From positions 1 through 64,000 of the forward strand of contig NZ_JANZKZ010000004.1 of assembly GCF_025770725.1 (NCBI RefSeq): DNA of 64,000 bases, given 5' to 3'. This DNA comes from Sulfurospirillum oryzae. Its GTDB lineage: Bacteria > Campylobacterota > Campylobacteria > Campylobacterales > Sulfurospirillaceae. A program made the position numbers and the translations under genes. Below, in pieces: positions 602 to 26,564 of this stretch. Every line of letters begins with the position of its first letter. Position 1 is the first letter of the stretch. Below the pieces are notes generated by a model. That model was not told the DNA's origin and searched no databases. It saw nothing but the letters and a program-made list of their open reading frames with translations.

Positions 602-639
602 TAATGCGCAGAAATAAAATATTTTTCTTGATTAAGTGG

Positions 640-645: not shown

Positions 646-669
646 TATCCAAAGGAGATAATATCAGAC

Positions 670-4089: not shown

Positions 4090-5264
4090 GACGTAAGGGA
4101 TGGGTTGATGGGTATGATTGCTTAATCATTCCTCATCCTTATCCTGATGAACTGTTAAGTTCATGGTTAACACGAACGGCTTTCGCTCATGGCTATTCTC
4201 TAACAACCTTTCTTTCTTTGTTTATCAAACATGATGGCAGTGCACTTAGTCGTATAGACTTAGATTTTAATGACACTAAGGCATTGATAAGCCAGCTTGC
4301 CTCCAAATGCCACTTGAATGTGCAAACACTCCAGTCATTAAGCCTACGCAGCGAAGAAGGGTATCTTTTTGAGGGAGATAGTGCTACGCTGTATCCGCCC
4401 AAGCAAATTCGAAAACTCAAAGATAAACGAACGCATTATGGACTGATGTTTTGTCCAAAATGTTTAGCTGAAGATTCCCAACCGTATTGGCGTAAGCAAT
4501 GGCGGTATCTTTTTTATAATGCTTGCCCAAAGCATCGTGTATTTTTAATGGATCGTTGTTGGGTGTGTTATGAACGAGTTCGTTTTTCAAAAATGAAACC
4601 ATCGGAAGAGATAGTGTATTGCAGCAGGTGTGAGCATGATCTCAGACAAACGCTAACGCACCCTATAAGTATGGAACAATCTTTTGGTATACAAGCGATT
4701 GAATGGTTTGAACAAGGATTAAAAGAGGGGTATTTTGAGATTAACAATACAAAAATATCCTCTTTATTTGTCTTTCATGTCTATAATCTACTTTATTACA
4801 AAATAGCTTCATTGAAAGATGCGCTGCGTTTTGAGGCATTTCCTATGATTGATGCCTATAATCAATTGTATTCAAAAGAAGCGCATTATCATTCAAAAAA
4901 AGCGACTTTGATTTATAAAAATTTTTATCTTACAGCTATGATTCACCAGCTATTTCAAAACTTCCCAATAAACTTAATACAATTTGCAAAAGACAATAAC
5001 TTAACACATCGAGATTTCTTACACAGCACAAAGATAGCTCCTTTTTGGTTTAAAGAAGCAATCGATCAATCTATCCCTTTACAAGATACGGTTGGCAGAA
5101 TTATCAGTGAAAATGAAGTCAAAGGTGCAATCAAATACCTTAAAAGTATCGGAAAAAATATAAATCAGAAAAATGTAGCGGATATTTTAGGCTGCCATTT
5201 TACGCTTCATAAACAGTTTGTGGCGTTGTATAAAACTATGGCATTGCGATATGGGAGAATATGA
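4086..5264 (+). CDS. tniQ: Target-site selector TniQ/TnsD
   Basis: The 392-residue protein opens with the TniQ signature PHPYPDELLSSWLTR (about residues 17-31). Two zinc-ribbon-like Cys/His clusters follow: FCPKC with CPKH (about 120-150), then CWVC with CSRC (about 158-182). The C-terminal third has an HTH-like part (NVADILGCH). TniQ/TnsD proteins recognise a specific chromosomal site and recruit TnsC. As the only TniQ here, it is the natural candidate for directing insertion to the mnmG 3' end. It is shorter than E. coli TnsD (508). The gap after it contains a possible relic of further TniQ-like sequence. Confidence 0.92.
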   Translation: MRRKGWVDGYDCLIIPHPYPDELLSSWLTRTAFAHGYSLTTFLSLFIKHDGSALSRIDLDFNDTKALISQLASKCHLNVQTLQSLSLRSEEGYLFEGDSATLYPPKQIRKLKDKRTHYGLMFCPKCLAEDSQPYWRKQWRYLFYNACPKHRVFLMDRCWVCYERVRFSKMKPSEEIVYCSRCEHDLRQTLTHPISMEQSFGIQAIEWFEQGLKEGYFEINNTKISSLFVFHVYNLLYYKIASLKDALRFEAFPMIDAYNQLYSKEAHYHSKKATLIYKNFYLTAMIHQLFQNFPINLIQFAKDNNLTHRDFLHSTKIAPFWFKEAIDQSIPLQDTVGRIISENEVKGAIKYLKSIGKNINQKNVADILGCHFTLHKQFVALYKTMALRYGRI

Positions 5265-5531
5265 ATATTCATCAAAGTATAATGTTTCTTTTGTAATAAT
5301 CCAAAACACTTATTTCATTTCTATAATTATTATGTATATAGAAGAGAATTAAAAAAAGCAATACTCTTAAATGGATTAGGACAAATCAAAGTTGGTTTGA
5401 TAAAAGTAAAGAAAGTAATCTACTAATTGCTACTATGTGTGAAATTATGTATTAATTTCTATGTTAAGAATTCAAATAATACAATATATTTTTAAACTAC
5501 ATTTATGAGTCAAAAAAGGGTAAGATATAAA
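5265..5531. other. Gap between tnsABC-tniQ and the ssp operon
   Basis: The gap is AT-rich and holds no convincing gene. A stop-to-stop frame at about 5351-5458 encodes a short W-rich peptide (KWIRTNQSWF and onward) that faintly resembles the C-termini of TnsD proteins and may be a decayed remnant. A TACAAT box at 5480-5485 is a possible -10 for the following operon. Confidence 0.4.
5480..5485 (+). promoter_or_regulatory. Candidate -10 box of the ssp-dpt operon
   Basis: TACAAT lies about 46 bases before the preferred sspB start. The other genes of the operon overlap or nearly abut, so this is the most likely single promoter for all seven. No -35 box is evident. Confidence 0.4.
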
Positions 5532-6374
5532 ATGATATTTAACAAAATATCCTTTTCAGGACATGAGAAATTTGATTGTAAAGCTTCTTGGCTTTGTTTA
5601 GCATATCGCGATGTAAATGTCATACAAGGACATATAGAAACTGCTATTGAGTTAACAGGGATAGGTAGCAATAAAGTTAAATCCTTACGTCAATGGGTAC
5701 ATAAATTAGGGTTATTTGATGGTGGAAAGTTTAATGAATTAGCAGTCCTTATTTTTTCTCAAGATCCTTATCTTGAAAAAGTTGATTCTCTTTGGATTTT
5801 GCATACATTTTTGACGCAGAATATTGAAAAGGCAACTCTGTATCATCTTTTTTTTAATCAATTCTTTTTCACAACATTTACAAAAGATTCTCTTCAATTA
5901 AAATTAGAAAAGTGGTGTAGTGAGCATCAAATAAGAATGTCTGTAACTACGCTAGAAAGTGATATAACTATTCTGACAAAGATGTATCTCAAAAATAATG
6001 ATAAAGACCAATTTTCAGCAAGTCTATTTCATGATTTAAATATTCTTCACAAAGTAGATAATGAATACATCGTAAATTTAAAAAATCCAGCTCTCTTATC
6101 TGATAAAGCATTTTTATTTATTTTTTGTTATTTCATTCGGTATCATAAAGGTAGCACAATTTCTGTAAAAGATTTACAATTTGGACAGAATAGTTTACAA
6201 AACACTTTATGCTTGACAGAAGAAAAACTATTAGAAAAATTAACCAAGTTGAGTGTTCTTACAGATAATCAAATTGTGTATCAAGAAGCAGCAGGGATAA
6301 AACAAATTTACATTCATCATTTACCAACGCTCCAAGAAGCACTTGCAAATGTTTATGGCAAGGAAGTTGCGTGA
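5532..6374 (+). CDS. sspB: DUF4007 family protein, SspB-type phosphorothioation nickase
   Basis: The 280-residue protein begins with the DUF4007 hallmark FSGHEKF (residues 7-13). It continues with a KSLRQWVHKLGL segment (about 50-61) and SLWILHTFL...FFNQFF (about 92-117), matching the family pattern of an N-terminal DNA-binding region followed by an LW-LH helix. In the SspABCD system the DUF4007 protein SspB is the DNA nickase needed for single-strand phosphorothioation. I chose the ATG at 5532 because AAGGG lies upstream and the family motif normally sits a few residues from the start; an in-frame ATG at 5505 has no ribosome site. It overlaps sspC by four bases. The family call is firm; the SspB role comes from context with sspC and sspD. 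Confidence 0.8.
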   Translation: MIFNKISFSGHEKFDCKASWLCLAYRDVNVIQGHIETAIELTGIGSNKVKSLRQWVHKLGLFDGGKFNELAVLIFSQDPYLEKVDSLWILHTFLTQNIEKATLYHLFFNQFFFTTFTKDSLQLKLEKWCSEHQIRMSVTTLESDITILTKMYLKNNDKDQFSASLFHDLNILHKVDNEYIVNLKNPALLSDKAFLFIFCYFIRYHKGSTISVKDLQFGQNSLQNTLCLTEEKLLEKLTKLSVLTDNQIVYQEAAGIKQIYIHHLPTLQEALANVYGKEVA

Positions 6375-9300
6375 AATATTCTGAAATTTTCAACATAGCA
6401 TCAAATTTCCGAAGATCAACAAATATACTGTATGATACGAATTGTGACTCATATATTTTATCTACTTCTTCTGTTGAGGCGCTACGCAGAATCTTCATAG
6501 GTAGTGCATCGAGTTCTATCGCAATTACTGGTCCTTTTGGATCTGGTAAATCATCACTATTGCTTTTTCTTGAGGCACTTCTTTCTAAAAAAACTGAGCA
6601 TGCAGTTTGTATTCAAAAGCTACATAATAAAGAACCTGAGATATATAAACATTATCAAGATCTTGTTGGAACTCATGTCAAAGGTTTTTTGACTATTAAA
6701 CTGATCGGTGAACATCTATCTTTCAAAAAAATTTTCATTGCTGCTTTATATGCAAAAAAAGAGTTAAAAGCCACACATCAATTTATCAAGACAAATGAAG
6801 AAATATCATTTCTTTCTTTACTTGAAATTTTTAATGATGAAGTTATCAAGCTTGGATATAGTGGAATCTCAATTTTCATTGACGAACTTGGAAAAATTAT
6901 TGAATATGCTTCTGAAAAATATCTTGATTCAGATATTCACGCTTTACAAGATTTAGCAGAGTTTGCAAATAAGCATAAAAATTATCGTCTAGTAGTTGCA
7001 TTGCATAAGAGTTTTAAAGACTACGTACAAAATACGTCCAGTATATCGTTTACAGAGTGGGACAAAATTCAAGGACGTTTTGAAAATATTGTTTTTCAAG
7101 ATGATTTTTATGAGCTTATGCATATTTTTGAAGAGGCAATTACTGTCACTAATAATGCAGCCATTACAAGTATTCAAGCGCATGTTCTTAAACTCTTTAA
7201 AGATTACAAAAAGCATGTTTCACATAAAAGTATTCCTGTCAACGAAGTATCATTACAAAAGCTAGCACCATTGCACCCATTTACGGCACTTGCGCTTTTT
7301 CATATATTCTCTAAATATTTTCAGAATCAACGTTCAGTTTTCTCATTTTTGTCAGCTCAAGAGCCTTATTCATTTCAAAACTTTATTTCCGAAGAACAAA
7401 CAGAGTCATCTCTTTATACATTACCGATGCTCTTTGATTATATCAATTATTTATTGAATGCCTATCGCGTCAACATGATTGATCAAGAGTCCTGGAATTT
7501 GGCTAATGAGTATCTTGATAGTGCAAATATTTTAACAAATACACAGAAGAATATTATCAAGTCTATTGCACTTGTTTCTGCTTTTAAACTAGAACATCTA
7601 ATTCAACTTGATGATTACTCTTTACCGTTAGCTTTACCAGGTTCACAGAATGTACAAGAGTCTATTCACGCATTATTAGACAAGGGTTTAATACTTCATA
7701 AATTGGCTACTAATGCCTATGCTCTAATTGAAGAAACAAGTATTGACATTAATACTGACCTTGCAGCAATTATAAAAGGACAAATCAAAACGGATTTCGA
7801 GGCTGAGATTAATAAGTTGATTCATGAAGACAAAGTCTTGGCTAAACGTTTTTATATCAATACAGGAACGGCAAAGTTTTTTACAAAAAAATTTATAGAA
7901 ACAGATCTTACAAAAAGCCTCACTGATACTTTTGAGTTAATATATGTAAGTACTGATGTATCAGAAAACCAACTTATAGAAGCAAGCAAAAAAAATCCCA
8001 CAAGTATTTATATTCCATTACCACTAACTCGACAGCTAAAAAGCATTATTGAACAATCAATAGCGATTGAGACGATGTTAAAACGCAAAGATGTACAATC
8101 AAATCAACTAGTTCGTAAAATTTTGCACAACATGCTCCACACAAATAAAAATGAAATAGATAAGATTCTAGAAATCAAAGAGCAAATGTATTTTAGCGGA
8201 AGAGTACATCCTTTTACATCAGAACTGCTACAAAAAAGTATTTCTGATATCCTTGAAAAAGCTTATATAAATATGCCAGTCATCATTAATGATCTTGTGA
8301 ATACTATTAATCGTGAACTGTCTGTACCACCTGGTGTCAAAATGCTCTTTAAGCATATGCTAGAGTGTGAAAATGACGCTGATTTAGGTATAGATAAAAC
8401 GCCACCAGAAAAGGCCATTTATTTATCGGTAATGAAAAGATCTGGTCTCCATTTATTCAACGTGAAAAATCAAAAATGGGAATTTTTTAATCCAGATCAA
8501 TGTAATTTCGCACCATCTTGGCAAATGCTCATGAATCAGATGAAAAAGAGTCAGACCCTTAGCGTGGTAACACTGATCAATACATTGACTGAAAGTCCAT
8601 TTGGCTTGAATGATGATGCTGCAAAGTTTGTTGTCTTTTTATTTTTAATTGTCAATGAATCGCGTATCCATTTTTTTAGAGAAAATACTTATCAATTTGA
8701 TTTCGATATTGACCAAGTAATGGATATTTGGAAAAATACAAAACTTTATACTGTTCGATGGTATGAACTTTCGAAAGATGAAGAAGCAATTTTTGCACAA
8801 TATATTTGCATCTTTGATCAATACTTTGATGCAAGTTATTCTAGGCAAAATATCAAGTTTGTCTTCCAAAAGCTCTTTACAAAACTTAACATGCTTCCAA
8901 AATACTGCCATCAAACTCAAAAGCTTTCTGATAATGCAATTAAGCTGAGATCTAGCATACTTTCTTCAAAAGAGCCTCATGTATTATTTTTTGAGCTATT
9001 CCCAAAGGCTATTGGATTTGATTCCCTTACAAGTGCCAATGTAGGTGAGTTTACTGATTCTTTTAAGCAAGCATTCAATGAAATCGTTTTCTCGTATAAA
9101 TCAATGGTTCTGGAGCTTGAACAAACAATGGTAAGTGTCTTCAATTTTGCTAGTAAACATTACCCTTTTGAGAATGAACTTGACCATATTTTAGAGAAAT
9201 ATTTGAAACAAAATGATGATAAAAATATAAATGATATTTCACGTATATCTAAATCCGCAAATGATTTAGTTTCATTTCTCAATGGGATATCGCTTGTGTT

Positions 9301-9625
9301 AATGCATAAAAAAATAGATGATGCATTTGATAATGATGTCCGAGATTTGAAGCGAAAGATTAAATCATTTGCTCAACATATCCTTTCAAAACTTGATATT
9401 ATTGAATTAATGAATGAACGACAGGTAGATGTTAAAAAACTAACAGTCTCTGCTCTCAATAGTGAAAATAATATGGTGGTTTCTGTGGATAATAAAAAGA
9501 TATTAGAGCTAAGCCAGCACGCAGAAAATATTTTATACAATTTCCCACATAATCTATCAAAAGATGAAAAGCTTTATTTAATTGCATTACTCGCAGAAGA
9601 AGCTTCAAAGGAAAATAATGAATAG
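6371..9625 (+). CDS. sspC: Large P-loop ATPase, SspC-type
   Basis: The protein is 1084 residues. Walker A is GPFGSGKSS (K60) and Walker B is IFIDELGK (D171, E172). The rest is a long alpha-helical protein without another recognisable catalytic motif. Its position between a DUF4007 gene and a PP-loop sulfurtransferase gene identifies it as the ATPase of an Ssp phosphorothioation module. It also resembles the BREX ATPase BrxC in size and Walker placement, but no pglX, pglZ or brxL is nearby. The GTG start overlaps the sspB stop (GTGA) and has an AGGAAG ribosome site at 6361-6366. Confidence 0.75.
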   Translation: MKYSEIFNIASNFRRSTNILYDTNCDSYILSTSSVEALRRIFIGSASSSIAITGPFGSGKSSLLLFLEALLSKKTEHAVCIQKLHNKEPEIYKHYQDLVGTHVKGFLTIKLIGEHLSFKKIFIAALYAKKELKATHQFIKTNEEISFLSLLEIFNDEVIKLGYSGISIFIDELGKIIEYASEKYLDSDIHALQDLAEFANKHKNYRLVVALHKSFKDYVQNTSSISFTEWDKIQGRFENIVFQDDFYELMHIFEEAITVTNNAAITSIQAHVLKLFKDYKKHVSHKSIPVNEVSLQKLAPLHPFTALALFHIFSKYFQNQRSVFSFLSAQEPYSFQNFISEEQTESSLYTLPMLFDYINYLLNAYRVNMIDQESWNLANEYLDSANILTNTQKNIIKSIALVSAFKLEHLIQLDDYSLPLALPGSQNVQESIHALLDKGLILHKLATNAYALIEETSIDINTDLAAIIKGQIKTDFEAEINKLIHEDKVLAKRFYINTGTAKFFTKKFIETDLTKSLTDTFELIYVSTDVSENQLIEASKKNPTSIYIPLPLTRQLKSIIEQSIAIETMLKRKDVQSNQLVRKILHNMLHTNKNEIDKILEIKEQMYFSGRVHPFTSELLQKSISDILEKAYINMPVIINDLVNTINRELSVPPGVKMLFKHMLECENDADLGIDKTPPEKAIYLSVMKRSGLHLFNVKNQKWEFFNPDQCNFAPSWQMLMNQMKKSQTLSVVTLINTLTESPFGLNDDAAKFVVFLFLIVNESRIHFFRENTYQFDFDIDQVMDIWKNTKLYTVRWYELSKDEEAIFAQYICIFDQYFDASYSRQNIKFVFQKLFTKLNMLPKYCHQTQKLSDNAIKLRSSILSSKEPHVLFFELFPKAIGFDSLTSANVGEFTDSFKQAFNEIVFSYKSMVLELEQTMVSVFNFASKHYPFENELDHILEKYLKQNDDKNINDISRISKSANDLVSFLNGISLVLMHKKIDDAFDNDVRDLKRKIKSFAQHILSKLDIIELMNERQVDVKKLTVSALNSENNMVVSVDNKKILELSQHAENILYNFPHNLSKDEKLYLIALLAEEASKENNE

Positions 9626-10463
9626 GATTCGGCATATTCTGTCTATATCAGGAGGAAAAGATAGTGCAGCGTTAGCATTTCATCTAAGAGACACTCGCCC
9701 TAATATTGAATTTGAATATGTTTTTTTTGATACAGGAGAAGAACTTCCTGAAACCTATGCTTATCTTGAAAAATTAGAACGTGCATTAGGTATTACAGTA
9801 AAAAAAATTTATCCAAAAAAAAGTTTTAGTGACCTTTTAAAACAATACAATGGATTTTTACCATCACCAACAGAGCGATGGTGTACACGTAATTTAAAAC
9901 TAGAAGCATTAATTGACTATGTCAAAGAAGGTACAATCTATAATTATATAGGTATTCGAGCAGATGAGAATCGAACTGGACTTGTGCCCCATCGAGAAAA
10001 TTTTTATACGGTCACACCATTTGTTGAAGATGGAATAACATTAAATGACGTCAAACGTATTCTTCATGAAAATGGTGTAGGATTACCTGAGTATTATACA
10101 CCTGAATATGATAAAAAATTTGATATTTCCTATAATCGAACACGTTCTGGTTGTTATTTTTGTTTCTTTATGCGCCAAATTGAATGGGTATGGTTACTTG
10201 AAAAACATCCTGAAAAATATTGGGATGCTGCTAATTTTGAAAAAAATGGATACACATGGATTCGAGACATGTCTCTTGAAGAATTTGCAAAACCAGAAAA
10301 TATAGATCGAGTTAAAGAGTCATATAAAAAATATGAAGAATATAAAAAAAGCCACAAGATAAAAAATGGCACCATGATGGAAGAGATGGCATTCTTAGCA
10401 CGTCATGATAAAGATTTAGATGATTTTGAAAATGATCAATTTTGTAGCATGTGCGCGCTCTAG
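9618..10463 (+). CDS. sspD: PAPS-reductase-like ATP pyrophosphatase, SspD/DndC type
   Basis: This 281-residue protein has a PP-loop SISGGKDSAAL at residues 8-18, the ATP-pyrophosphatase signature shared by PAPS reductases, DndC and SspD. Cysteines in ERWCTR (about residue 90), SGCYFCFF (about 177-180) and the C-terminal CSMC are placed like the four ligands of a DndC-type iron-sulfur cluster. The expected role is to activate the DNA phosphate with ATP and deliver sulfur to the backbone. The frame is open from 9582, but the ATG at 9618 follows AAAGGA (9607-9612) and overlaps the sspC stop by eight bases. No cysteine desulfurase lies nearby, so the sulfur donor must come from elsewhere in the cell. 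Confidence 0.85.
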   Translation: MNRIRHILSISGGKDSAALAFHLRDTRPNIEFEYVFFDTGEELPETYAYLEKLERALGITVKKIYPKKSFSDLLKQYNGFLPSPTERWCTRNLKLEALIDYVKEGTIYNYIGIRADENRTGLVPHRENFYTVTPFVEDGITLNDVKRILHENGVGLPEYYTPEYDKKFDISYNRTRSGCYFCFFMRQIEWVWLLEKHPEKYWDAANFEKNGYTWIRDMSLEEFAKPENIDRVKESYKKYEEYKKSHKIKNGTMMEEMAFLARHDKDLDDFENDQFCSMCAL

Positions 10464-10474
10464 AAAGTAGTAAA

Positions 10475-11950
10475 ATGTCTATTGAAAGACTTAAAGAACT
10501 TGCAATTTCTTTGAAATTAGATTGCCAAGAAAAAGAAAGCGGCATTACTCAGTTTTGGATTCAGGCAGGTTATTCTTTTATTGAATTAAAACATCTTTAT
10601 AGTTATTTAGATAGTCTGTACGATATTTCCGATGATAGAGAATTTATCAATAAAAATGAATATTGTATCAGTCTCAAATATATTTTTAGATCATGGCATG
10701 CTAAAGGTAATAGAACTGATTTGAATGTAATTTCATCGATTATTACTTGTGTTTTTTTAAGAGTATGGCTTAACTCTTCATTTCATATGACTGAAATATC
10801 ACATCCAGTTATTGAAGATGAGTTATATGGGGTAGAACTCATCCCATCTCAACCTTTTCATTGTGTATTGAATATAGAGAATAAGACTCATTTCAAGTTT
10901 CTCGAAAATCTTATAGTTAATTTTTTTATCTTGAATCAATCATTTTATTTTTTTACAGGATGTTTATTAAATATTAGCGATGAAATTAGTTATTCAAATG
11001 AAATATTAGATGAGTGGTTAAAATTAATTAATAAAAATAAGAATATTTTTTATTCATGTAATTCAAGGACTAATCCTAAATGGCTCTTTTATAAGGATGG
11101 CAAATATTCAATTATCAAAAGTAAAGAGTTGGTAACATCTTTGCAAATCATTCTCAAAGAATATAATATTGTGATTATCGAAGGAATCAATGGCTTACTA
11201 TTTGTTGGAGATAATATTAATAATATTATCTATCATAAAGAGTACAAAAAAGCTTTGAGTTTACTTCACCGACTAGAAGAAAAACATGAGCATTCAACAA
11301 TTGTAGCGTTAGACAATTTTTCCATACTCCTTGGGATTGAAAACATTGTTATCTTTAAAAATGATGGTTCATTAAAAAACTTCCTCGAAGAAAAAGAGTT
11401 ACTGAAGGAACGACATAATAATGAAACCAAACTACTCTTTAGTGAATATGAAATTTCTATCAAAATCGATTCTCAAGAAGACACAGAAGAATTTGAAAAT
11501 TTAATTCTTGATCTGCTAAAAAAGGAAAAATACATTTATTGGGCCAGGAAAGTTTCTCCTACAAATCAGCCAGACAATGGACGAGATATATTATGTAAAT
11601 TCAATCCTATTTATAACAGTGAACATTTTATACAGGATAGTCCTACATTAAAATATGAAAAGATGATAGTTCAATGTAAAACCATTTTCAGAAAAAGTAA
11701 AAAACAGAGTATAGGTAAAACAGATGTAGATGTTGCTGATACAATTTTTGAATATAAACCTAAAGGATATATGTTAGTCACGAATACGCAAATAACAGCA
11801 CGATTAACAGAATACTTAGAAACTATAGCTACAAGAGAAGGTATATATATCGACTGGTGGAATAAAGAAGATATTGAAGAACGAATAATGCAATATCCTG
11901 AATTAATACAAAAATATAATAACATTCTTATTGGAAAGAGGAGGTTATAG
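10475..11950 (+). CDS. Protein with C-terminal Mrr-like restriction endonuclease domain
   Basis: The protein is 491 residues from the ATG at 10475; a GTG at 10451 would add eight residues and overlap sspD. The first 330 residues match nothing I recognise. The C-terminal part has the PD-(D/E)XK pattern of Mrr-family nucleases: Glu in a helix ending LDLL (about 350), D371 in NGRDI, then VQCK with Q400 and K402, followed by a TNTQIT segment and helices. It lies between the modification genes (sspBCD) and the dptFGH-like genes, 11 bases after sspD and directly against dptF. It probably supplies or regulates DNA cleavage in this defence system; whether it cuts unmodified or modified DNA cannot be told from sequence. 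Confidence 0.75.
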   Translation: MSIERLKELAISLKLDCQEKESGITQFWIQAGYSFIELKHLYSYLDSLYDISDDREFINKNEYCISLKYIFRSWHAKGNRTDLNVISSIITCVFLRVWLNSSFHMTEISHPVIEDELYGVELIPSQPFHCVLNIENKTHFKFLENLIVNFFILNQSFYFFTGCLLNISDEISYSNEILDEWLKLINKNKNIFYSCNSRTNPKWLFYKDGKYSIIKSKELVTSLQIILKEYNIVIIEGINGLLFVGDNINNIIYHKEYKKALSLLHRLEEKHEHSTIVALDNFSILLGIENIVIFKNDGSLKNFLEEKELLKERHNNETKLLFSEYEISIKIDSQEDTEEFENLILDLLKKEKYIYWARKVSPTNQPDNGRDILCKFNPIYNSEHFIQDSPTLKYEKMIVQCKTIFRKSKKQSIGKTDVDVADTIFEYKPKGYMLVTNTQITARLTEYLETIATREGIYIDWWNKEDIEERIMQYPELIQKYNNILIGKRRL

Positions 11951-13759
11951 GTGGGATTAGCTCATTTTTTTAGACTTTTAGCAGCTTATGCGCCAACCTC
12001 TCAAAATAAAGCTGCCTACGATGAACATGTCTCAAAATATGCAAAACGTTTAGGTGTTGAAGAAATTAACATTGATAATGGTCTTTTTCCCAAACTCTTC
12101 CAAACATTTGCTATTCAGCCATGCTCAATCATCCTTTCTGGCTCTGCAGGAGATGGGAAAACCTATCTGTTGAGAAAACTTTTTGAACAAATTAGTGGTA
12201 ATATGGACACTTGGGGGAATACTTACATTCCAGAAGCTGTCTATAATGAGTACAGCATTAAATTCATCAAAGATTTTACAGAGATTGAAAAAGAAGACAA
12301 GCAAGTAGTCCTTGAAGGGCTTTATCACTCGATATTGGGGAATTCTAAACAGCTTTATATTATTGCTGCAAATGATGGAATATTAACAGATACGTTGCGT
12401 GAAGCTATTCATGTTGAGAATGTTCAGCATTTTGGAGAGCTTTTAACACTAATCGAAAAACATATTGATGAAACGCATACTCTCGATGGGAATTTAATTC
12501 TGCTTGATCTTAGCCAAACATCTTCAGCAAAGAACTTTAAACTACTGCTCAACGCAATTTTGGATATGGCCGATCGCTATGAATGCAATTGCCCAAGCCT
12601 ATCTAATCCAGCAATCTTTTGTCCCATTCATGCGAATATTGCATTACTCAAAAAAGAACATATTCAAAAGCAGCTACTGACCATTATTCGAAGCTGTGAT
12701 CTCAACTATAATCACATCACATTACGTAAGCTCTTTATGCTCATTGCTAACATGATCCTTGGATACAAGGGTGAACAACGGGTGTTTTTAAGTTGCGAAG
12801 AAGCAATTGTACACTATGCAGAGCAATCTAATAGAGTTGATGCTTCCTTTTACAACAACATCTTTGGTGATAATCTTTCCCGAAGTAAGCAAGAAAAAAG
12901 CCCTTTCAAAGAGCTACTTGAGCTTCGCATAGGTTACGAAACAACCAATAATATCGATAATTTTATTCTGTATGGAGACATTCAAGCTCCTGAGTTGCAT
13001 ACACAAAGATTGACAAATCCATTTTTTGATTTCAACATATTTAATACGATCAAAGATAAGTACCTTGAAGAGGGAGATAATACAAAAATCCACGAATATC
13101 TTCTCTTTTTACGCCGACATCTTTTTTTCAACTTTGATGAAAAAATTCTCTGGAATGGTGTGACTATCAATGTTAATGAGCTTATGACCTATAAGTATGC
13201 CGAAGAGTTTTATATTAGTGTTATCACGCCACTTAAAAAAAAACAAAGCGTTTCAAAGCACATTATTAAAGAACTCGCTCTCGGGTTAAATCGAATTTTC
13301 CTAGGCGAACTTTTAAGTAGAGAAGGGAGTGATCGGCTTTATATTGGCTCATCATTGACAAGTGCTATGTCAAAGCTCTCATCCGAAGTCATTGCTCGTA
13401 TAGAGTTTAACCAGCGGCATTTGAACCAGGGGCTTCATCTGAATATTGTCGAGGGGTTTGATGAAGAGTATTGCACAGTTAATCTAGAAATAGAATTTGC
13501 TGGAGAACGCATCGCATCTCTAGATCTTGACCTACATATGTTTGAATTTTTACGACGTATAGCAGATGGAATCCTTCCCACAAGTTTCTCTGCAGAGTAC
13601 TATGAGCGCGTGTTGACATTTAAATCACAATTGGTGAACTATATGCTGCAGACACAAGAGCCAGACAATATTTTTAACCTCTTTATGCTCAATGACACTG
13701 AGGGAACATTGCAGTTTAATGAAATTCAAGTGGAGGGTGTCTATGTTCGAGAAAGCTAA
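11951..13759 (+). CDS. dptF: DptF/DndF-like ATPase of phosphorothioation-dependent restriction
   Basis: The 602-residue protein carries Walker A SGSAGDGKTY (K70), a form seen in DptF proteins. A Cys-containing region CNCPSL...FCPIH (about 214-226) may bind metal. In Dnd systems DptF acts with DptG and DptH to restrict DNA that lacks backbone sulfur. A GTG start at 11951 is supported by AGGAGG at 11939-11944, six bases upstream, and by the preceding stop directly before it. The gene overlaps dptG by 17 bases. The family call rests on the P-loop form, size and order (ATPase, middle protein, giant FtsK-like protein); an SspF-type assignment is an alternative. Confidence 0.72.
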   Translation: MGLAHFFRLLAAYAPTSQNKAAYDEHVSKYAKRLGVEEINIDNGLFPKLFQTFAIQPCSIILSGSAGDGKTYLLRKLFEQISGNMDTWGNTYIPEAVYNEYSIKFIKDFTEIEKEDKQVVLEGLYHSILGNSKQLYIIAANDGILTDTLREAIHVENVQHFGELLTLIEKHIDETHTLDGNLILLDLSQTSSAKNFKLLLNAILDMADRYECNCPSLSNPAIFCPIHANIALLKKEHIQKQLLTIIRSCDLNYNHITLRKLFMLIANMILGYKGEQRVFLSCEEAIVHYAEQSNRVDASFYNNIFGDNLSRSKQEKSPFKELLELRIGYETTNNIDNFILYGDIQAPELHTQRLTNPFFDFNIFNTIKDKYLEEGDNTKIHEYLLFLRRHLFFNFDEKILWNGVTINVNELMTYKYAEEFYISVITPLKKKQSVSKHIIKELALGLNRIFLGELLSREGSDRLYIGSSLTSAMSKLSSEVIARIEFNQRHLNQGLHLNIVEGFDEEYCTVNLEIEFAGERIASLDLDLHMFEFLRRIADGILPTSFSAEYYERVLTFKSQLVNYMLQTQEPDNIFNLFMLNDTEGTLQFNEIQVEGVYVRES

Positions 13760-15266
13760 ATACTTAAAGTCATACGGCATCAAAACACCTTTTCTGCAAG
13801 AGTTAATATGGTTTCATCGCATTAACGACGACCAAGACAAAGAACTGCTTACCTTGGAATTTTTAAATGTGTGCGCTAATCATGCCAAAGAAGGCAGGCT
13901 ATTTGATAAAGAGCTTACTACCGTCAATTACCGTAAAGATATTCAGCTTAGAACGATTCTTTACAATTTTCCTGAACTCGAAAGTATTCACAAAACCCCA
14001 GGAGATGATGCTATCAAATGGGAACACATCATATCCTGCTTACAGAATAAACTTGAGAAGCCGTTTGATTATAGTTATTTACGCAAACGATTTGATTCAA
14101 TCGAAACATTTGTTTTCTCCGTATTGTTACTTCGTAAAGCGTCGTTAGGCATTAGCACATCAAGACGATGGACAAGTAAATTCCTTTTTCCCTTCTCTTT
14201 CGATACCTTATTTGTAGATATTGATAACCGTAAAGAGACTTTTTCTATGGATCGGCGTTTCTTCTCAAGAGGTGGAGAAGTGTTATACCTTATGGTGAGT
14301 AGAGGCAAAAATATTGATGAGTTAAAAACTTATATGAAACGTATTTTTGAAAACCCTTCACAAAACAAGCGATGGAATGCACTTACAACAGCTTTTAGAA
14401 GTGAAGAAGAAACCGTTAAAGAGCCTGTAAGGTTAGGCTTTTTACAGCTTAACTCTCATGAGATATACGATCAACTTGTGGATGATTTGATTACATTATT
14501 CAAGTCAAATATTCCAAATAACGATCTTTTCTACCATTTCGCATCTATCGCATCATTTTACATGGTACATTTTATTTTGACCGTTGCCGCACAGAACCTC
14601 AAAAGCAGTCTGATTCAAAATGAAATCCATAAAGTTGTTTATCCTATAGAATTACTCGCCCCTAGAAGCGATCATGTTCGTCGAGCATCACGTCAAATCT
14701 ATAAAATCAATGAAGAGCTACCCTTAAAAATCTTAGAACTTGTACTCACCAATTATTTCCAAGAGATAGCCAATGTCGATGACAAAGATATCCTTCTGAA
14801 AATGCTTGATAATGATCTCAACTATGTAAACGAAGACAATCAATATACCGCTGATATTAACCTCGATGAACTCTTTAAACATATCTGGAACACTATTTCC
14901 CAAAAAGCCAAAAATGATCTTTTGCCAATTCATCGTGTACTTTTAAAAGGTGCAGGACTTGCAAGTGCTAAAAAGACTAACAGCTATCGTTATCTTGCGA
15001 ATGATGAATGGTTGAAAACTCTGGTGCTCATTAATGTTTCGGAACGCATTCCATTTCATCAGTTTATTGATATTCTTTATGAGAAATATGGGTTCATTAT
15101 CTCAAACAAGCACTCTTCACTTCTTATCGAAGCATATTCAGACAATGACTTCAAAAAAAATGAATTAAGACTTTTCGAACGCCTTCGCGCTCTTGGGTTA
15201 CTCGAAAGTAAATCGGATGGATATGCTTATGTCTTAAACCGCCATGGAAGGAATCTGTCAGAATGA
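13743..15266 (+). CDS. dptG: DptG/DndG-like restriction protein
   Basis: This is a 507-residue protein without a catalytic motif that I recognise. It is rich in helices and ends in what looks like a winged-helix region (about 435-500). The ATG at 13743 has GGAGGG at 13732-13737 five bases upstream and overlaps the dptF end; an earlier in-frame ATG at 13692 lies inside dptF without a ribosome site. It overlaps dptH by four bases (ATGA). Its position between a DptF-like and a DptH-like gene is the main reason for the name. It would be the middle component of the restriction complex. Confidence 0.62.
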   Translation: MFEKAKYLKSYGIKTPFLQELIWFHRINDDQDKELLTLEFLNVCANHAKEGRLFDKELTTVNYRKDIQLRTILYNFPELESIHKTPGDDAIKWEHIISCLQNKLEKPFDYSYLRKRFDSIETFVFSVLLLRKASLGISTSRRWTSKFLFPFSFDTLFVDIDNRKETFSMDRRFFSRGGEVLYLMVSRGKNIDELKTYMKRIFENPSQNKRWNALTTAFRSEEETVKEPVRLGFLQLNSHEIYDQLVDDLITLFKSNIPNNDLFYHFASIASFYMVHFILTVAAQNLKSSLIQNEIHKVVYPIELLAPRSDHVRRASRQIYKINEELPLKILELVLTNYFQEIANVDDKDILLKMLDNDLNYVNEDNQYTADINLDELFKHIWNTISQKAKNDLLPIHRVLLKGAGLASAKKTNSYRYLANDEWLKTLVLINVSERIPFHQFIDILYEKYGFIISNKHSSLLIEAYSDNDFKKNELRLFERLRALGLLESKSDGYAYVLNRHGRNLSE

Positions 15267-18200
15267 ATCTCATAGCTAAATATATCTCCGAAAAAATTCT
15301 ATCAGAAAGCTATTCTTCTACAGATGAACAAACGAGAGGGATGTTTCGTCTTTCTCTTTATGCTAAACATGTTATTGAGGATATTCTAAATTATTATCAT
15401 GTAAATCATAACAATCATATTCTATTTTTGCTTGATAATGAATTTGGATTTACCCATCAACACAATTTTGCTATCCATGTTAATCGTGATGTTATGGCGC
15501 AATATCGAAATGAAAATCTCAAAGAACATCAAATTAATCTTGAAAAGATTAGATATCTCGTGTTCGTACCTTTTGAAGATGTTGATACTCTTCTCGACAT
15601 TGATACAATCACACCTGATGATATTGCTAGAAATTTTGAATCTATCATTTCGGCCATTGATCTACCTTTCCTGGATCGCCATAGCAAAATAAAACTCCAA
15701 AAAGTTGCTAAAGTATTTTTAAAAGAGGTTGATGAACTTGATCCATTTCAAATGGAGAGTTTTACACAAACTACTCTTTGTCATTTAAATAATGGCAATC
15801 CTATAGAAGATGCGATGGGACTTTCACTCAATATTTTGAATGCATTTAAGTGTCACAAATTTTTTGTAAGTCTCAAAAAAAATGACTCTGTGCAAGAAGT
15901 TAAAAAGCTTGCGCAATCTTTTAAAACGTTATCTGCTGGATTAGCTAAACGTGTTGGCAATAAAACACTTGATACAGAAATATTGCTCAGCAAAAGAGAT
16001 GAAAACCGTGAAGAGTTTGATCATCTTAAGGTGCTAGATGCAGCAAAGTATGAACTCATAAATAAATTTATTGTAGCAGATTACAAAGAACTGTTACATC
16101 GAAAAGCTGAGTTTAGCCAGCTTGACTGGCAAGAAGATTATGTTTATCGCCTTTTTGAAAAAACTCTATCAGATACGTCCAAAGCACTAGGCGCTGAAAC
16201 CGTAGATTTGCTTGGGGCACTAGACATTGATTTGCATGAACATGAAAAAAATAGTCTGTTCCAATATGATGCACTCAAGGCGAGTGAGAGATTAAATCTA
16301 CGCGATATTCTTGAGCCTATTTATAAAAAATATAAAGGCTACATTGAAAGCAATAAAGCATTGCGCAACAAGTGGGATAAATTTCTTTATCCATCGCAAA
16401 CGAAATCAGATCATTTTATATTGGGTTTACTTGACACAATCAAAAAGCTCAAAGCGGATGTAGAAAATATTGATCATATTGAAGTAACGTTAAAGCAGAC
16501 ACAAACTGCTGCAATCGTACGAAACTACACCAAATATGCGATTGATTATCTACATAAACGTTATGCAATTTTAAACAGGGTATCCCAAAAAATACACTTT
16601 GATTTTAAATTTATTATAGATATTGATGAACGTCTTACAAAGCAAAAACTTTCTGCAGAGGATAAAAAATTTCGTAAAGGAAGTCTATCTAGAGCTTCTA
16701 ATGAACTGCATTTTATCGTCTATGCTAAAAATGCTACTGGTGAAACTTTAAAAGAGCGAAAGTTGATTTGGAGCTATGATCCCAATACTCTCTTAAACGG
16801 TTACAAGGAAGACGTAGAAGCTATTCAAGATCATTTAAAAAATAAAAAGCTTTATTCCAATATCGTTTATCGTGCGAGTAGTTCCGAAAAAGGAGAGAAG
16901 AAACCACTTTCGCTCTATGATTTTTCTTCGCTAGAAACCCGAGGCAATGTCTCTGGATACCGTCTTTTTTCAAAGAAAAATGATCTCGGAATTTCTAGCA
17001 AAGACATTGCGTTATCAGCGCAAAAGCTACTTGATAGTGATTCATTTAACCAGTTTCAAACACTTTTTACTGCGTATATGAAGCAGTATGCATGGCTTCT
17101 AAAAGAACTAGATATCCTCTCTACCGTGGAAAAATCAGTCTTTGATTTTAATGGCGTTGAAAAGCTTAGCCAAGCTTACATTGCACTTTGTCATTTCCTT
17201 TATGACAATAGTAATCATGACGTATTTAAGTCTAATGTCATTGAACCTTTTTTGACTCTATTAACCATACGCGTTGGGCAAGAAGATACGGTACTTATTC
17301 CTGCTTATCACCCCTTACGACTCATTTCATATTTTGTTAAGCTCAAATATACCTTTGATTTTGTAGATAACTACATTACATCTGCAGAGACACCACTGAT
17401 CAAAGAAGACTTGTTTTTCAATGATCTTGAGCAAAGTTTTATTACACCTTACTATCCTGAAGTCTTTCGCCTCTTTGATGTTGAGGGTAATGAACAGAGC
17501 ATATTACATATCTCAGAAGCATATGATGACTATACCATCCTAGAGCCTGTTCAAAACTTCTTAAATAGCGGGCAAAGTGCAGATCCTTCTTCTCAGAGTG
17601 CGATATTAAGTAAAGTCATCGAAAACTATTTAGAACTTAACCAGCACAAGCAAAGCAGTTTAAAAGTTCTACTTCACGCCGTTAATAACTATGACTTCCC
17701 TGTGAAGTTTATGAAAAAATTGATGTCTCTTGATTTTACATCCCAAGAAAACAACTTTGAAATCTACCTGAATGATGTTGATGCAACGCATATTCGAAAA
17801 ATGTACCGAGCATTTTTAGTAAATCAAAATAACCAAGATGCGGAAGAAGCACTTGAATACAATGAAGTCTCTTTCTTATCCAATATCAGGCTAAATGCTT
17901 TTGATCAAAGCTTCAAGCAACTAGATACCGTTAATGACCAACTGAATATTGCATTTTTGAATGACTTTGTGTCGTCCAAAGCAAAAATCGAATTTAGAAA
18001 ACAATTACTTGAAAAACCTTATTCACTGTTTGACTTTCACCCTACAATGTGGTCAAAAAGAAAATATATGACGCAACAAGAGAGCAGTGTAGGCAAATAT
18101 CTTGTCTCACCAGCCAAAAGTGAACTGACTAGTTCCTTTTATAATTTGCTCTATCTCACTATGAGTACGCATCGAGATGATTATACAAATAAGGTTCCCA

Positions 18201-20458
18201 CGCTAAAAGTGGACAGACAGCATAAAAGTCTTCATTCCGACTTAGAAGCGATTCATAAGCGCACGGACTGGGTAGTAAACCTGGATGCCTTGTTGGATAA
18301 GAAAATTCTTGAGGAATTTGGTGCCAATGTCATTAAATACCGCAAGGCACGACATATCAATCGTAACCTTGTTATCTCCTCCAAGGCAAATACCATTCTA
18401 CTTGAAAATCATCTCATGAAAAAATTCAAAGATTTTCATGTGCGTGAAGATATCGTCAAAACGACTGTCGAAAACATCATCAAATCAGCAAATGAATTAT
18501 CTGGTGATGTCTTACTTAAAGCCATTGGAAAAGGATGTTTTGCCAATGAAATGCTTGGTCTTGTTTTGACTAAAACCATACTTGAAGGGTGTTCTGAAAA
18601 TCAAAATATCCTTATCCTTATTGATGATTATGCTGATTGGTTTTTGTCGAGCATTAGCTCAGAAGAAAAGCTACTAATAGCACAGAATAATGTCCTGGCA
18701 GATATTCTTGCGATTACTCCAATCTTTGAGGGAGAAAGACTTAAGACCATTTATATTGATGTCGTTGAATCCAAGTTCTGTAGTGAAAGTAGTCGTGCAC
18801 AAATGGCAAAAAAATCACTTCAGCAAACAAAAGATTCTTATACTCTTTTTAACAAAGTGTTTGAAGATAATACTTATGCCGATAGAGAATATTGGATTGC
18901 AAAAATTTCCGACTTAATTGTTGAAAACCATCATAAAAGTTTTGTTGGTAATTTAACATCAGAAGATATACGTAATGCAATACGTACTGACAAATCAATC
19001 AAATTCATTGTTCGAGGTATGTCATTTGTATGTGTGTATGATTACGAGGAAAATTATCAGCCTGAAACTGGTATAGAGAATGTTACACAATATATAATAG
19101 GATCTAAATCCATTGTAAAAATGATTGAAGAACTGCCACAGTTTAATCATATGTTGCCTGATATAACATTGCCAACTTATAAATTGCAAATGAAACAAAT
19201 ATCTTTTGAGATGAGTTCATGTGAAAATTCTTTGCAAGACACAATTATTGAAACAAGTGTCCCATTAAGCGAAACAAAATCTGAAATTAAGCAGATTACA
19301 ACAGAAACTGTAATTGTAGATACAAAAAATAAAGATGATATAACCATAAGATATACTGAAGAAAAAGCGGCAAAAGAAGTTGCGGAACATGCAGAAGGCG
19401 CAACTGTAAGTACAGCAGTCAAACAGGTAGTTATGCACCATGGTTATCGAGCTAAAATTCTACGATATCTATTTACACCTAATGCAGTGCGGATTTCTCT
19501 TGAGCCAGAATTAGGCTGGAATGAGAATATTTTCTACAAAATGAGTAATGATTTTCTTGCTGTCAAAATGCTCAAGCTACTGCGTGTAGAAGTTGTACCT
19601 GGTTCCTATGAGTTAGTATTTTTACGAAAAGAGCGACAAGTAATTTTCTATGAAGAATGCCTCAAAGATAGGGAATTGAGTGATGGGGCCGGTAATACGA
19701 AGATTCTGCTCGGACGTAATGAAAAAGATAATGAAGTCGTTTACTACAATCTTGATAGTGAAGACCCACACGCACTTATTGGAGGTATGACGAAAAGTGG
19801 TAAGAGTGTGCTACTTAATATTTTCATTGTTGATTTAATTCAAACTAATACGCCTGACGAATTACGCTTGATATTGGTTGATCCAAAACAAGTTGAATTC
19901 ACTCGATATAGGGGTATTCCATACCTCGATGATGATGGAATCATCATCAAAAAGGAGCTTGCTATTGTAAAGCTACATACCCTTGTTGATGAGATGGAAA
20001 GACGCTATTCGCTTTTTGCAGAAGCTGGTGTCAATGAAATCAATAAATATAATAGAAAAGTTGATACGAAGATACCAAGAATTGTCCTTATTTTCGATGA
20101 ATTTGCTGATTGGATGCTTGATGATGAATTTAAAAAAGAGGCTAGTAGTGCCGTTCAAAGTTTGTCTGGGAAAGCAAGAGCTGCAGGTATTCACCTAATT
20201 GTTAGTACACAACGTCCTGACAACTCTGTTGTTGTACCTATTCTGCGAGCGAACTTAGGTGCAAAATTTGCATTACGTGTGGATAGTGAAAAGAACTCAG
20301 CTATCATTCTTGATGAACCAGGAGCAGAAAAACTACTCGGCTATGGTCATATGATTGCTAAATTTGCTGGGCAAAAACAATATATCCAAACAGCATTTAT
20401 ATCTGATGAGCTCATAGACTCCGTTCTAAAGAGTGTCATAACTTGTGAAAAAAAATGA
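15263..20458 (+). CDS. dptH: DptH/DndH-like giant FtsK/HerA-type ATPase
   Basis: At 1731 residues this is the largest gene in the window and close to the usual length of DptH. About 1330 residues of helical sequence precede a linker (about 1330-1390, Glu/Thr-rich). A C-terminal FtsK/HerA-like motor domain follows: Walker A GGMTKSGKS (K1514), Walker B LIFDEFAD (D1612, E1613) and STQRPD. Such domains translocate DNA; in DndFGH the H subunit is needed for cleavage of unmodified DNA. It is the last gene of the operon, with 237 bases of non-coding DNA after it. SspH of an SspBCD-SspFGH system would be an alternative name. Confidence 0.78.
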   Translation: MNLIAKYISEKILSESYSSTDEQTRGMFRLSLYAKHVIEDILNYYHVNHNNHILFLLDNEFGFTHQHNFAIHVNRDVMAQYRNENLKEHQINLEKIRYLVFVPFEDVDTLLDIDTITPDDIARNFESIISAIDLPFLDRHSKIKLQKVAKVFLKEVDELDPFQMESFTQTTLCHLNNGNPIEDAMGLSLNILNAFKCHKFFVSLKKNDSVQEVKKLAQSFKTLSAGLAKRVGNKTLDTEILLSKRDENREEFDHLKVLDAAKYELINKFIVADYKELLHRKAEFSQLDWQEDYVYRLFEKTLSDTSKALGAETVDLLGALDIDLHEHEKNSLFQYDALKASERLNLRDILEPIYKKYKGYIESNKALRNKWDKFLYPSQTKSDHFILGLLDTIKKLKADVENIDHIEVTLKQTQTAAIVRNYTKYAIDYLHKRYAILNRVSQKIHFDFKFIIDIDERLTKQKLSAEDKKFRKGSLSRASNELHFIVYAKNATGETLKERKLIWSYDPNTLLNGYKEDVEAIQDHLKNKKLYSNIVYRASSSEKGEKKPLSLYDFSSLETRGNVSGYRLFSKKNDLGISSKDIALSAQKLLDSDSFNQFQTLFTAYMKQYAWLLKELDILSTVEKSVFDFNGVEKLSQAYIALCHFLYDNSNHDVFKSNVIEPFLTLLTIRVGQEDTVLIPAYHPLRLISYFVKLKYTFDFVDNYITSAETPLIKEDLFFNDLEQSFITPYYPEVFRLFDVEGNEQSILHISEAYDDYTILEPVQNFLNSGQSADPSSQSAILSKVIENYLELNQHKQSSLKVLLHAVNNYDFPVKFMKKLMSLDFTSQENNFEIYLNDVDATHIRKMYRAFLVNQNNQDAEEALEYNEVSFLSNIRLNAFDQSFKQLDTVNDQLNIAFLNDFVSSKAKIEFRKQLLEKPYSLFDFHPTMWSKRKYMTQQESSVGKYLVSPAKSELTSSFYNLLYLTMSTHRDDYTNKVPTLKVDRQHKSLHSDLEAIHKRTDWVVNLDALLDKKILEEFGANVIKYRKARHINRNLVISSKANTILLENHLMKKFKDFHVREDIVKTTVENIIKSANELSGDVLLKAIGKGCFANEMLGLVLTKTILEGCSENQNILILIDDYADWFLSSISSEEKLLIAQNNVLADILAITPIFEGERLKTIYIDVVESKFCSESSRAQMAKKSLQQTKDSYTLFNKVFEDNTYADREYWIAKISDLIVENHHKSFVGNLTSEDIRNAIRTDKSIKFIVRGMSFVCVYDYEENYQPETGIENVTQYIIGSKSIVKMIEELPQFNHMLPDITLPTYKLQMKQISFEMSSCENSLQDTIIETSVPLSETKSEIKQITTETVIVDTKNKDDITIRYTEEKAAKEVAEHAEGATVSTAVKQVVMHHGYRAKILRYLFTPNAVRISLEPELGWNENIFYKMSNDFLAVKMLKLLRVEVVPGSYELVFLRKERQVIFYEECLKDRELSDGAGNTKILLGRNEKDNEVVYYNLDSEDPHALIGGMTKSGKSVLLNIFIVDLIQTNTPDELRLILVDPKQVEFTRYRGIPYLDDDGIIIKKELAIVKLHTLVDEMERRYSLFAEAGVNEINKYNRKVDTKIPRIVLIFDEFADWMLDDEFKKEASSAVQSLSGKARAAGIHLIVSTQRPDNSVVVPILRANLGAKFALRVDSEKNSAIILDEPGAEKLLGYGHMIAKFAGQKQYIQTAFISDELIDSVLKSVITCEKK

Positions 20459-20695
20459 TACAACTAACATTATGACTCTATGTGCCTTAGCCATGCAGAA
20501 AGCTAAGCTGTCACTTGGAACACATTATTTGCGATTCCAATAAAAGATAAAAGGACTTTTTCATCAAATCCATTATATAGATGAAAAGAAATATGAGAGA
20601 AGATCCTCAAATGAATTAATGATAAGTGAACCTAGCTAGCGCATTATTTTAGCTTTAAAATTATCACGAATAAAATAGTGTTTATTAGTATATAA
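20459..20695. other. Convergent intergenic gap after dptH
   Basis: No gene is seen. Two short inverted repeats (CTTAGC with GCTAAG at about 20487-20508, TTGGAA with TTCCAA at about 20515-20540) might slow transcription from dptH, but no T-run follows and no terminator call is justified. Confidence 0.35.
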
Positions 20696-21559
20696 CTAAA
20701 TTTGAATCGTGAAAATCTTTATACCTTTAGCCTCTCCACTATAACCTAGAGCATTGGTGATAAAGCGTTTATCATCATGGCGAGTATAGTCATACGAGGT
20801 ATGGTTATGTCCATAAATCCAAAGATTGGCACGCATCGTTTGAATCAACTCTTCTGCATTAAAACAGAAAAATGATGTGGTAGGATTCTTCTCCCATCTT
20901 GGTGTTTGATGTTTCATATCAATGCTTGGATTGTAATGACTAATCATGACATCACAGTGTTGATGGATACTTTCTAGTTTGGCATATTCTTCTTTATAGA
21001 GTTCATCGAAATAATCAATCTTCATGTGTTTCTTATCATTGATAGCTTCACCCCAAAGATCTTGTAAGAAAGCTTCAATATCACCATAGTAATAGGCTAA
21101 GGCTTGCATGGCTTTAAGAGCGTGTAGGTTTTTTTGAACGTAAGCACTGTTGTACCAACCCATAGCACCACCAAAGGTGATTCCCTCTAAAGTCACAGTG
21201 GTACCATCCAAGACAATAAAACCATTCTTGCGATAGGCTTCTTTGGCAGCTTCTGCTTTTTGAAGTCCACCTTTTGTATATGTGGTGATATATTCATGTC
21301 CAATGAGATAATAGTCATGATTGCCTAAGACCAGAATAATATCTTGATAAAATGCTTCTTTGAGATATTTGAGGATAAGAACATTTTGTTCAATACTGTG
21401 TCCAATATCTCCTGCTAGGATTAAATAATTTCCTTTTGGTTTAAATGTACGCCAAAAACCAATGACGGCATCTTTGGAAGGAAAAAAGGTAGGACTTTGT
21501 GTACGAGGGTAGCCAAACCAGCTATCAAAATGGGTGTCACTGAGAATATCAATTTTCAT
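20696..21559 (-). CDS. Calcineurin-like metallophosphoesterase
   Basis: The 287-residue protein shows the five metal-binding blocks of the family: DTHFD (D8, H10), LAGDIGH (about residue 50), LGNHDYY (about 78-84), ISHYNP (about 203) and GHNH (about 250). Such enzymes are dinuclear-metal phosphoesterases acting on nucleotides, nucleic acids or phosphoproteins; the substrate cannot be read from sequence. It follows a second, shorter metallophosphoesterase by 27 bases in the same direction, probably one transcript. It is cargo of the transposon. Confidence 0.9.
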   Translation of the reverse strand: MKIDILSDTHFDSWFGYPRTQSPTFFPSKDAVIGFWRTFKPKGNYLILAGDIGHSIEQNVLILKYLKEAFYQDIILVLGNHDYYLIGHEYITTYTKGGLQKAEAAKEAYRKNGFIVLDGTTVTLEGITFGGAMGWYNSAYVQKNLHALKAMQALAYYYGDIEAFLQDLWGEAINDKKHMKIDYFDELYKEEYAKLESIHQHCDVMISHYNPSIDMKHQTPRWEKNPTTSFFCFNAEELIQTMRANLWIYGHNHTSYDYTRHDDKRFITNALGYSGEAKGIKIFTIQI

Positions 21560-21586
21560 GAGAAGTCATTTCCTTATCTAAGCTGC

Positions 21587-22201
21587 CTAGCAGAGCTTTA
21601 AAGGCATAAATCGTGTGTGTTCCACACCAACATTCACACAGCGCTCATCTTCATTAATTTTAGAGTGAATATGCCCATGGTAGTTTAAATCACAGTGGCA
21701 CCAATCAAACAGAGTTTCTAAAACTGCTTTTCTCTCATTTTCAATCTCTTTGGCATACACATCGTGATAAAAGCAAGGGTAATGAGAGAATAAAATACGT
21801 TTGCCTTGAAAGTCTTGAATCCAACAGATACAGGAATCCAAAAGTTCTTGAGAGAAAGTATCGTGTAAGCGTTGTTCAATCACCTGTTTTTCTTCCAAAG
21901 GGATATCAAGTATAATCGAATCAATCACTATTTCAAAACCATGTTCTTTTAAAAATGCTGTACTTTTTTTAAAATCATGATTGCCTTTTAAGAGGGTAAT
22001 CTTTCCTTTAAGCACTTTGGCATAATCCCAGCCTTTGGACTTAAATGCAAAATCACCTAAATGCCACACGTCATCTTCATCAGCGACAACACTGTTCCAT
22101 AAATCAATCATCATTTCATCATCAATACTTTCACGTAAGGGTTCATAGAGTTTAATATTGTCATGACCAAAATGGGTATCTGCAATAATGAATAGTGACA
22201 C
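21587..22201 (-). CDS. Calcineurin-like metallophosphoesterase, short form
   Basis: The protein is 204 residues with ADTHFGHDN at the N-terminus, HLGDFAF (about 47-53), LKGNHDF (about 69-75), SHYPCF (about 138-143) and YHGHIHS (about 173-179). This is the compact phosphoesterase type often found in phages and mobile elements, of unknown physiological substrate. It starts with GTG, with an AAAGG ribosome site about eight bases upstream. Together with the longer phosphoesterase downstream it forms a two-gene unit. Confidence 0.88.
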   Translation of the reverse strand: MSLFIIADTHFGHDNIKLYEPLRESIDDEMMIDLWNSVVADEDDVWHLGDFAFKSKGWDYAKVLKGKITLLKGNHDFKKSTAFLKEHGFEIVIDSIILDIPLEEKQVIEQRLHDTFSQELLDSCICWIQDFQGKRILFSHYPCFYHDVYAKEIENERKAVLETLFDWCHCDLNYHGHIHSKINEDERCVNVGVEHTRFMPLKLC

Positions 22202-22340
22202 AACGTTACCTTTAAAATAGACGAAATGAATTAGCAGTTATTGTAACGAGGATATGATGAGGGCAATATTAACCTTAAATTTGTGATAGTTGGTTTTTAA
22301 TATGTCTAGCTAAAAATTCTTTAGTGTAGTGTTTTTTATT

Positions 22341-22829: not shown

Positions 22830-22850
22830 ATATAATTACTTTATTTGAAA

Positions 22851-24837: not shown

Positions 24838-24855
24838 AGGGTACCCTTGTATTTG

Positions 24856-26547: not shown

Positions 26548-26564
26548 GTTTTATAAGTCCATTC

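What the first reader, a model, noticed from the sequence alone, without database searches (positions are those of the whole stretch)
5532..20458. Hybrid phosphorothioation system: SspBCD-type modification with DptFGH-like restriction
Seven overlapping genes combine a DUF4007 nickase, large ATPase and PP-loop sulfurtransferase (Ssp type) with an ATPase, a middle protein and a 1731-residue FtsK-like protein (DptFGH type). The published SspBCD-SspFGH cassettes are the closest known arrangement. No SspA/DndA, DndB, DndE or SspE is present, so the element must rely on a host cysteine desulfurase.
Basis: partly seen in the sequence, partly recalled or inferred. Interest (0 to 1): 0.8.

Follow-up and report, generated by a model that had tools for sequence, protein, structure and literature searches.

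The report
DNA-sulfur defence operon with extra nuclease
A jumping DNA element in a bacterium carries a known kind of anti-virus system that marks its own DNA with sulfur and damages unmarked DNA, and this copy holds an additional DNA-cutting enzyme in a spot where its closest relatives carry other defence genes or none, which suggests that the spot is an exchangeable bay for extra weapons.

Summary
The seven-gene operon is real. Profiles identify sspB, sspC, sspD, gene X, sspF, sspG and sspH. It is therefore not an Ssp/Dpt hybrid but an SspBCD-SspFGH phosphorothioation restriction system, a type published in 2021. DptFGH/DndFGH membership was tested and not met. The host lacks SspE and DndB but has NifS, a plausible sulfur donor. 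Gene X (10475-11950) encodes a Mrr-type nuclease (D...QxK intact) behind an unknown N-terminal ~330 residues. It fills the sspD-sspF junction exactly. In three related operons, DNA similarity stops at the sspD stop codon and resumes a few codons into sspF, and the junction holds GmrSD_N+kinase genes, a DzbA/DzbB-like pair, or nothing. Over 21 surveyed loci this junction carries inserts far more often than the others. The only full-length X homologue found (Aminobacter plasmid) also directly follows sspD. The operon is cargo of a 26.2-kb Tn7-like transposon inserted in the last codons of mnmG (5-bp duplication, empty site in 19 of 19 same-genus loci read). Best reading: a canonical sulfur-based restriction system with an exchangeable accessory-effector slot, occupied here by a Mrr-type nuclease. 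What X cuts is untested.

The parts
457..26628 (.). Tn7-like transposon carrying the operon (TGT...ACA ends; AAAAA duplication at 452-456 and 26629-26633)
   Evidence: Repeated AAAGTTTGA(T/G)AA sites at both ends, 5-bp duplication, empty mnmG-petA site in 19 of 19 same-genus loci read
598..1338 (+). TnsA-like endonuclease
   Evidence: Pfam Tn7_TnsA-like_N 1.6e-9
1325..3223 (+). TnsB transposase
   Evidence: PADLOC TnsB 1.6e-39
3220..4089 (+). TnsC/TniB ATPase
   Evidence: Pfam TniB 4.8e-56
4086..5264 (+). TniQ target selector
   Evidence: Pfam TniQ 7.6e-28
5532..6374 (+). sspB (DUF4007, DNA-nicking target subunit); ORF opens at 5505
   Evidence: PADLOC SspB 9.9e-52; PDB SspB 6juf 1.2e-4
6371..9625 (+). 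sspC (large ATPase)
   Evidence: PADLOC SspC 2e-154
9618..10463 (+). sspD (PP-loop sulfurtransferase, SGGKDS and conserved cysteines); ORF opens at 9582
   Evidence: PADLOC SspD 3.9e-90; alignment
10475..11950 (+). gene X: Mrr-type nuclease domain (about residues 340-490 of the ORF) behind an unknown N-terminal region, in the sspD-sspF slot; ORF opens at 10451
   Evidence: Pfam Mrr_cat 4.2e-5, over cut-off; invariant D379, Q408, K410 over four proteins; only full-length homologue found lies after sspD in Aminobacter
11951..13759 (+). sspF (ATPase)
   Evidence: PADLOC SspF 2.5e-113
13692..15266 (+). sspG (start uncertain)
   Evidence: PADLOC SspG 9.6e-102
15263..20458 (+). sspH (FtsK motor; candidate PD-(D/E)xK nuclease region near residues 1080-1290)
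   Evidence: PADLOC SspH 4e-258; FtsK_SpoIIIE 2.9e-34; invariant D1147, E1169, K1171; fold look-up

Best explanation
The operon is a canonical SspBCD-SspFGH phosphorothioation restriction-modification system with an accessory Mrr-type nuclease (X) in an exchangeable slot between the modification genes and the restriction genes, mobilised by a Tn7-like transposon. Proposed action: host NifS supplies sulfur; SspD, SspC and SspB place backbone sulfur in host DNA; SspFGH, whose SspH probably joins a PD-(D/E)xK nuclease domain to an FtsK motor, damages incoming DNA that lacks the mark; X adds a second cut, most likely on DNA that evades FGH, with its N-terminal region deciding the target. Shown here: gene identity, intact key motifs, slot exchange among relatives, transposon ends and empty site. 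From published work on other strains: modification and restriction by these families. Inferred: activity in this host, NifS as donor, and everything about X beyond its nuclease motif and position.
For: Profiles. Slot exchange: the nearest operon (L152, each Ssp gene 77-79% identical in DNA) has GmrSD_N+kinase, L039 has a DzbA/DzbB-like pair, L038 has nothing; homology ends at 10457-10464 and resumes at 11962-11966. Junction tally: sspD-sspF 9 of 21 loci with inserts against 2 of 72 other junctions, p = 1.3e-5. Window, L038 and L039 form one SspF clade (100/99 support). X homologue after sspD in Aminobacter. Low GC of X, 27.6%. Sulfur donor. Transposon. Published system: PMC8092258.
Against: X has only one full-length homologue in what was searched (none in 399 order-level genomes besides its own), so its link to SspBCD rests on two loci. 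Its N-terminal region has no recognised domain, and the structure prediction failed. Four of the nine slot inserts are SspA, not an effector. The Fisher test ignores relatedness of loci. No expression, modification or phage data exist for this strain.
Confidence: 0.72

Rival explanations
1. X is a sulfur-reading effector: its N-terminal region senses phosphorothioate (or its absence) laid down by SspBCD, and X is an alternative restriction partner comparable to SspE.
For: Both full-length X genes directly follow sspD; in Aminobacter no SspFGH lies downstream. The N-terminal region is shared by these two proteins only; the same Mrr domain elsewhere has a different N-terminal part.
Against: In Aminobacter another candidate effector set lies nearby on the other strand, so X may be an addition there too. 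No match of X to any sulfur-binding domain by sequence.
Confidence: 0.35
2. X is a type IV-like enzyme that attacks phage DNA carrying base modifications, complementing SspFGH as BrxU complements BREX.
For: Mrr-type nucleases are classically modification-dependent (established knowledge). BREX with embedded type IV BrxU is a published precedent (PMC8565348). The Mrr domain recurs beside cytosine methyltransferase and type II enzymes in Pantoea and Agrobacterium. GmrSD_N proteins take the same slot in relatives.
Against: No modified-base reader domain recognised in X.
Confidence: 0.35
3. X is an unrelated passenger of a defence-rich transposon that landed between sspD and sspF by chance.
For: Lowest GC in the operon; other defence-like cargo in the element.
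Against: The same association with sspD in a distant plasmid, tight spacing on both sides (11-12 bp after sspD, none before sspF), and preferential insertion at this junction.
Confidence: 0.2
4. The restriction half is DptFGH/DndFGH-type.
For: Shared layout: ATPase, middle protein, FtsK protein; a weak DndF match (5e-6).
Against: SspF/G/H profiles match by hundreds of bits over full length; no DndG/DndH match.
Confidence: 0.02

Closest known systems
SspABCD-SspFGH of Vibrio anguillarum FF-93 (PMC8092258)
   Same: The sspBCD and sspFGH gene families together, with the desulfurase function supplied by a general host enzyme
   Different: Mrr-type gene between sspD and sspF; carried by a Tn7-like transposon; NifS rather than IscS as the candidate donor
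SspABCD-SspE
   Same: SspBCD modification module
   Different: No SspE in this genome
DndABCDE-DndFGH (Dpt)
   Same: Sulfur-based self mark; large FtsK-type restriction subunit
   Different: Protein families differ; no DndB
BREX with embedded type IV enzyme BrxU (PMC8565348)
   Same: Accessory modification-type nuclease carried with a larger self-marking defence system
   Different: BrxU is GmrSD type and BREX marks by methylation

Membership tests
SspBCD-SspFGH phosphorothioation system | SspB, SspC and SspD present | tested here: met
SspBCD-SspFGH phosphorothioation system | SspF, SspG and SspH present next to sspBCD | tested here: met
SspBCD-SspFGH phosphorothioation system | Cysteine desulfurase in the genome | tested here: met
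   nifS_epsilon over its cut-off; that it serves SspBCD is not shown
SspBCD-SspFGH phosphorothioation system | Single-stranded phosphorothioate in host DNA | not testable with these tools
   needs mass spectrometry or sequencing
SspBCD-SspFGH phosphorothioation system | SspFGH damages DNA lacking the mark | not testable with these tools
   shown for FF-93 only
DndFGH/DptFGH | DndF, DndG and DndH as best profile matches | tested here: not met
   DndF 24 bits against SspF 377; no DndG or DndH match
Dnd modification system | DndB regulator | tested here: not met
   no match in the genome
SspABCD-SspE | SspE present | tested here: not met
   no match in the genome with one SspE profile
Type 4 BREX | PglZ and BrxL with the sulfur module | tested here: not met
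   none among the operon proteins
Mrr-type nuclease (gene X) | Mrr_cat domain with D...QxK residues | tested here: met
   24.1 bits against a cut-off of 21; invariant in four proteins
Mrr-type nuclease (gene X) | Modification-dependent cleavage | not testable with these tools
   needs cleavage assays
Phosphorothioate-dependent endonuclease with sulfur-binding domain (ScoMcrA type) | Sulfur-binding domain in X | tested here: inconclusive
   no sequence match in Pfam or PDB; fold prediction unusable
Tn7-like transposon | TnsA, TnsB, TnsC and TniQ | tested here: met
Tn7-like transposon | Terminal repeats, 5-bp duplication and a defined target | tested here: met

The most novel reading that the evidence does not exclude
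Gene X founds a third class of SspBCD restriction partner besides SspE and SspFGH, a Mrr-type nuclease that reads the sulfur mark, and the sspD-sspF junction is a general exchange site through which one modification module recruits many unrelated effectors.
Probability: 0.3. Interest if true: 0.7.

Novelty: new variant of a known kind. Interest (0 to 1): 0.5.

Why it matters
The 2021 survey found sspFGH or sspE beside only a minority of sspBCD modules and asked whether further restriction partners exist (PMC8092258). Four related operons that share six genes but differ in one precise slot give a natural comparison of candidate partners, which makes that question directly testable.

Tried and rejected
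Structure of X without an alignment: mean pLDDT 33.7, not used. X homologues in phages, viral contigs and Campylobacterota genomes: none beyond its own. X against PDB sequences: no match. Post-sspD genes of L030 and L031 against X: unrelated. SspH profile over the order: mostly ordinary FtsK; only two further real SspH loci, one of them apparently the same genome as L039. Papers with sspBCD plus restriction endonuclease plus Mrr, or Tn7-like plus mnmG: none in the library. Whole-operon DNA in plasmids: no match. Promoter and terminator scans: no more than in shuffles.

Full report
Seven genes lie head to tail on the + strand from 5505/5532 to 20458. PADLOC profiles name SspB, SspC, SspD, SspF, SspG and SspH over nearly full length.

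The interpretation needs correction. The last three proteins are SspF (377 bits, against 24 for DndF), SspG and SspH, not DptFGH. This is the SspBCD-SspFGH system published for Vibrio anguillarum FF-93, where SspFGH damages DNA lacking the mark and a host IscS supplies sulfur (PMC8092258). Here the genome has a nifS_epsilon gene (734 bits, cut-off 588) followed by a nifU-like gene, and no DndB or SspE. That NifS serves SspBCD is an inference.

From its ATG at 10475, 11 bp after the sspD stop codon, to 11950, directly before sspF, it encodes a C-terminal Mrr nuclease domain with D379, Q408 and K410 invariant across four proteins. Its N-terminal ~330 residues match no family. One full-length homologue was found, on an Aminobacter plasmid, again directly after sspD. 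The same nuclease domain with a different N-terminal part occurs in Pantoea and Agrobacterium beside cytosine methyltransferase and type II restriction genes.

The sspD-sspF junction is variable. Against L152 (same family; each Ssp gene 77-79% identical in DNA, 73-85% in protein), L038 and L039, similarity ends at 10457-10464 and resumes at 11962-11966. L152 holds a GmrSD_N protein plus a protein kinase there, L039 a DzbA/DzbB-like pair, L038 nothing. Elsewhere the junction holds DndB-type genes, an Hsp90-type ATPase pair or SspA. In 21 surveyed loci it carries an insert of over 450 nt in 9, against 2 of 72 other junctions (p = 1.3e-5; one sspG-sspH gap was set aside because that sspG is split). 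Loci are related, four of the nine inserts are SspA, and one locus (L100) is doubtful, so the p-value is only a guide.

SspH has in all 11 aligned sequences an invariant D1147...E1169-x-K1171 pattern upstream of its FtsK motor. A model of residues 940-1310 (mean pLDDT 71.6) aligns best with PD-(D/E)xK nucleases such as HamA and McrC, but no single match is strong (best Z 7.6; no Foldseek E below 0.001). DndH likewise joins a nuclease domain to a HerA/FtsK motor (PMC10853773). So SspFGH probably has its own nuclease and X is an addition.

The operon is cargo of a Tn7-like transposon, 457-26628, with TnsA, TnsB, TnsC and TniQ, TGT...ACA ends and an AAAAA duplication. All 19 same-genus loci read have mnmG followed directly by petA, the empty site. 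The element lies in the last codons of mnmG and its end supplies a near-equivalent C-terminus. A related element with SspBCD sits at mnmG in another genus (L031/L138).

Verdict: a new variant of a known system. The gene identities and the slot exchange are well supported. The role of X is open between a sulfur-reading effector, a type IV-like complement such as BrxU in BREX (PMC8565348), and a passenger.

Noticed in passing
window 452-26633; L031 and L138: Tn7-like element targeting the last codons of mnmG and restoring its C-terminus; a related element with SspBCD sits at mnmG in another genus. No paper in the library joins Tn7-like and mnmG.
   Followed up: partly
window 18080-19192 (SspH residues 940-1310): Invariant D...ExK pattern and a nuclease-like predicted fold upstream of the FtsK motor; a candidate nuclease of SspFGH.
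   Followed up: partly
L041, L042, L046, L049, L050, L055, L056, L059, L069, L072, L076, L078, L080, L081, L082, L092, L107: A ~795-aa protein (Hsp90-type ATPase domains in the two Pfam-tested, L042 and L076) plus a ~650-aa partner directly after sspD in 17 of 80 loci, without SspE match where tested; a candidate undescribed SspBCD partner.
   Followed up: partly
L031, L039, L040: DzbA/DzbB-like pairs directly after sspD, with or without sspFGH.
   Followed up: partly
L057, L091, L101, L111: DndB-type genes, each beside a ~165-aa gene, in SspBCD loci.
   Followed up: partly
window 20696-26547: Other transposon cargo: two metallophosphoesterases, an AAA_15 ATPase resembling defence proteins, a HTH protein and a 563-aa protein shared with the related element in L031.
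   Followed up: partly
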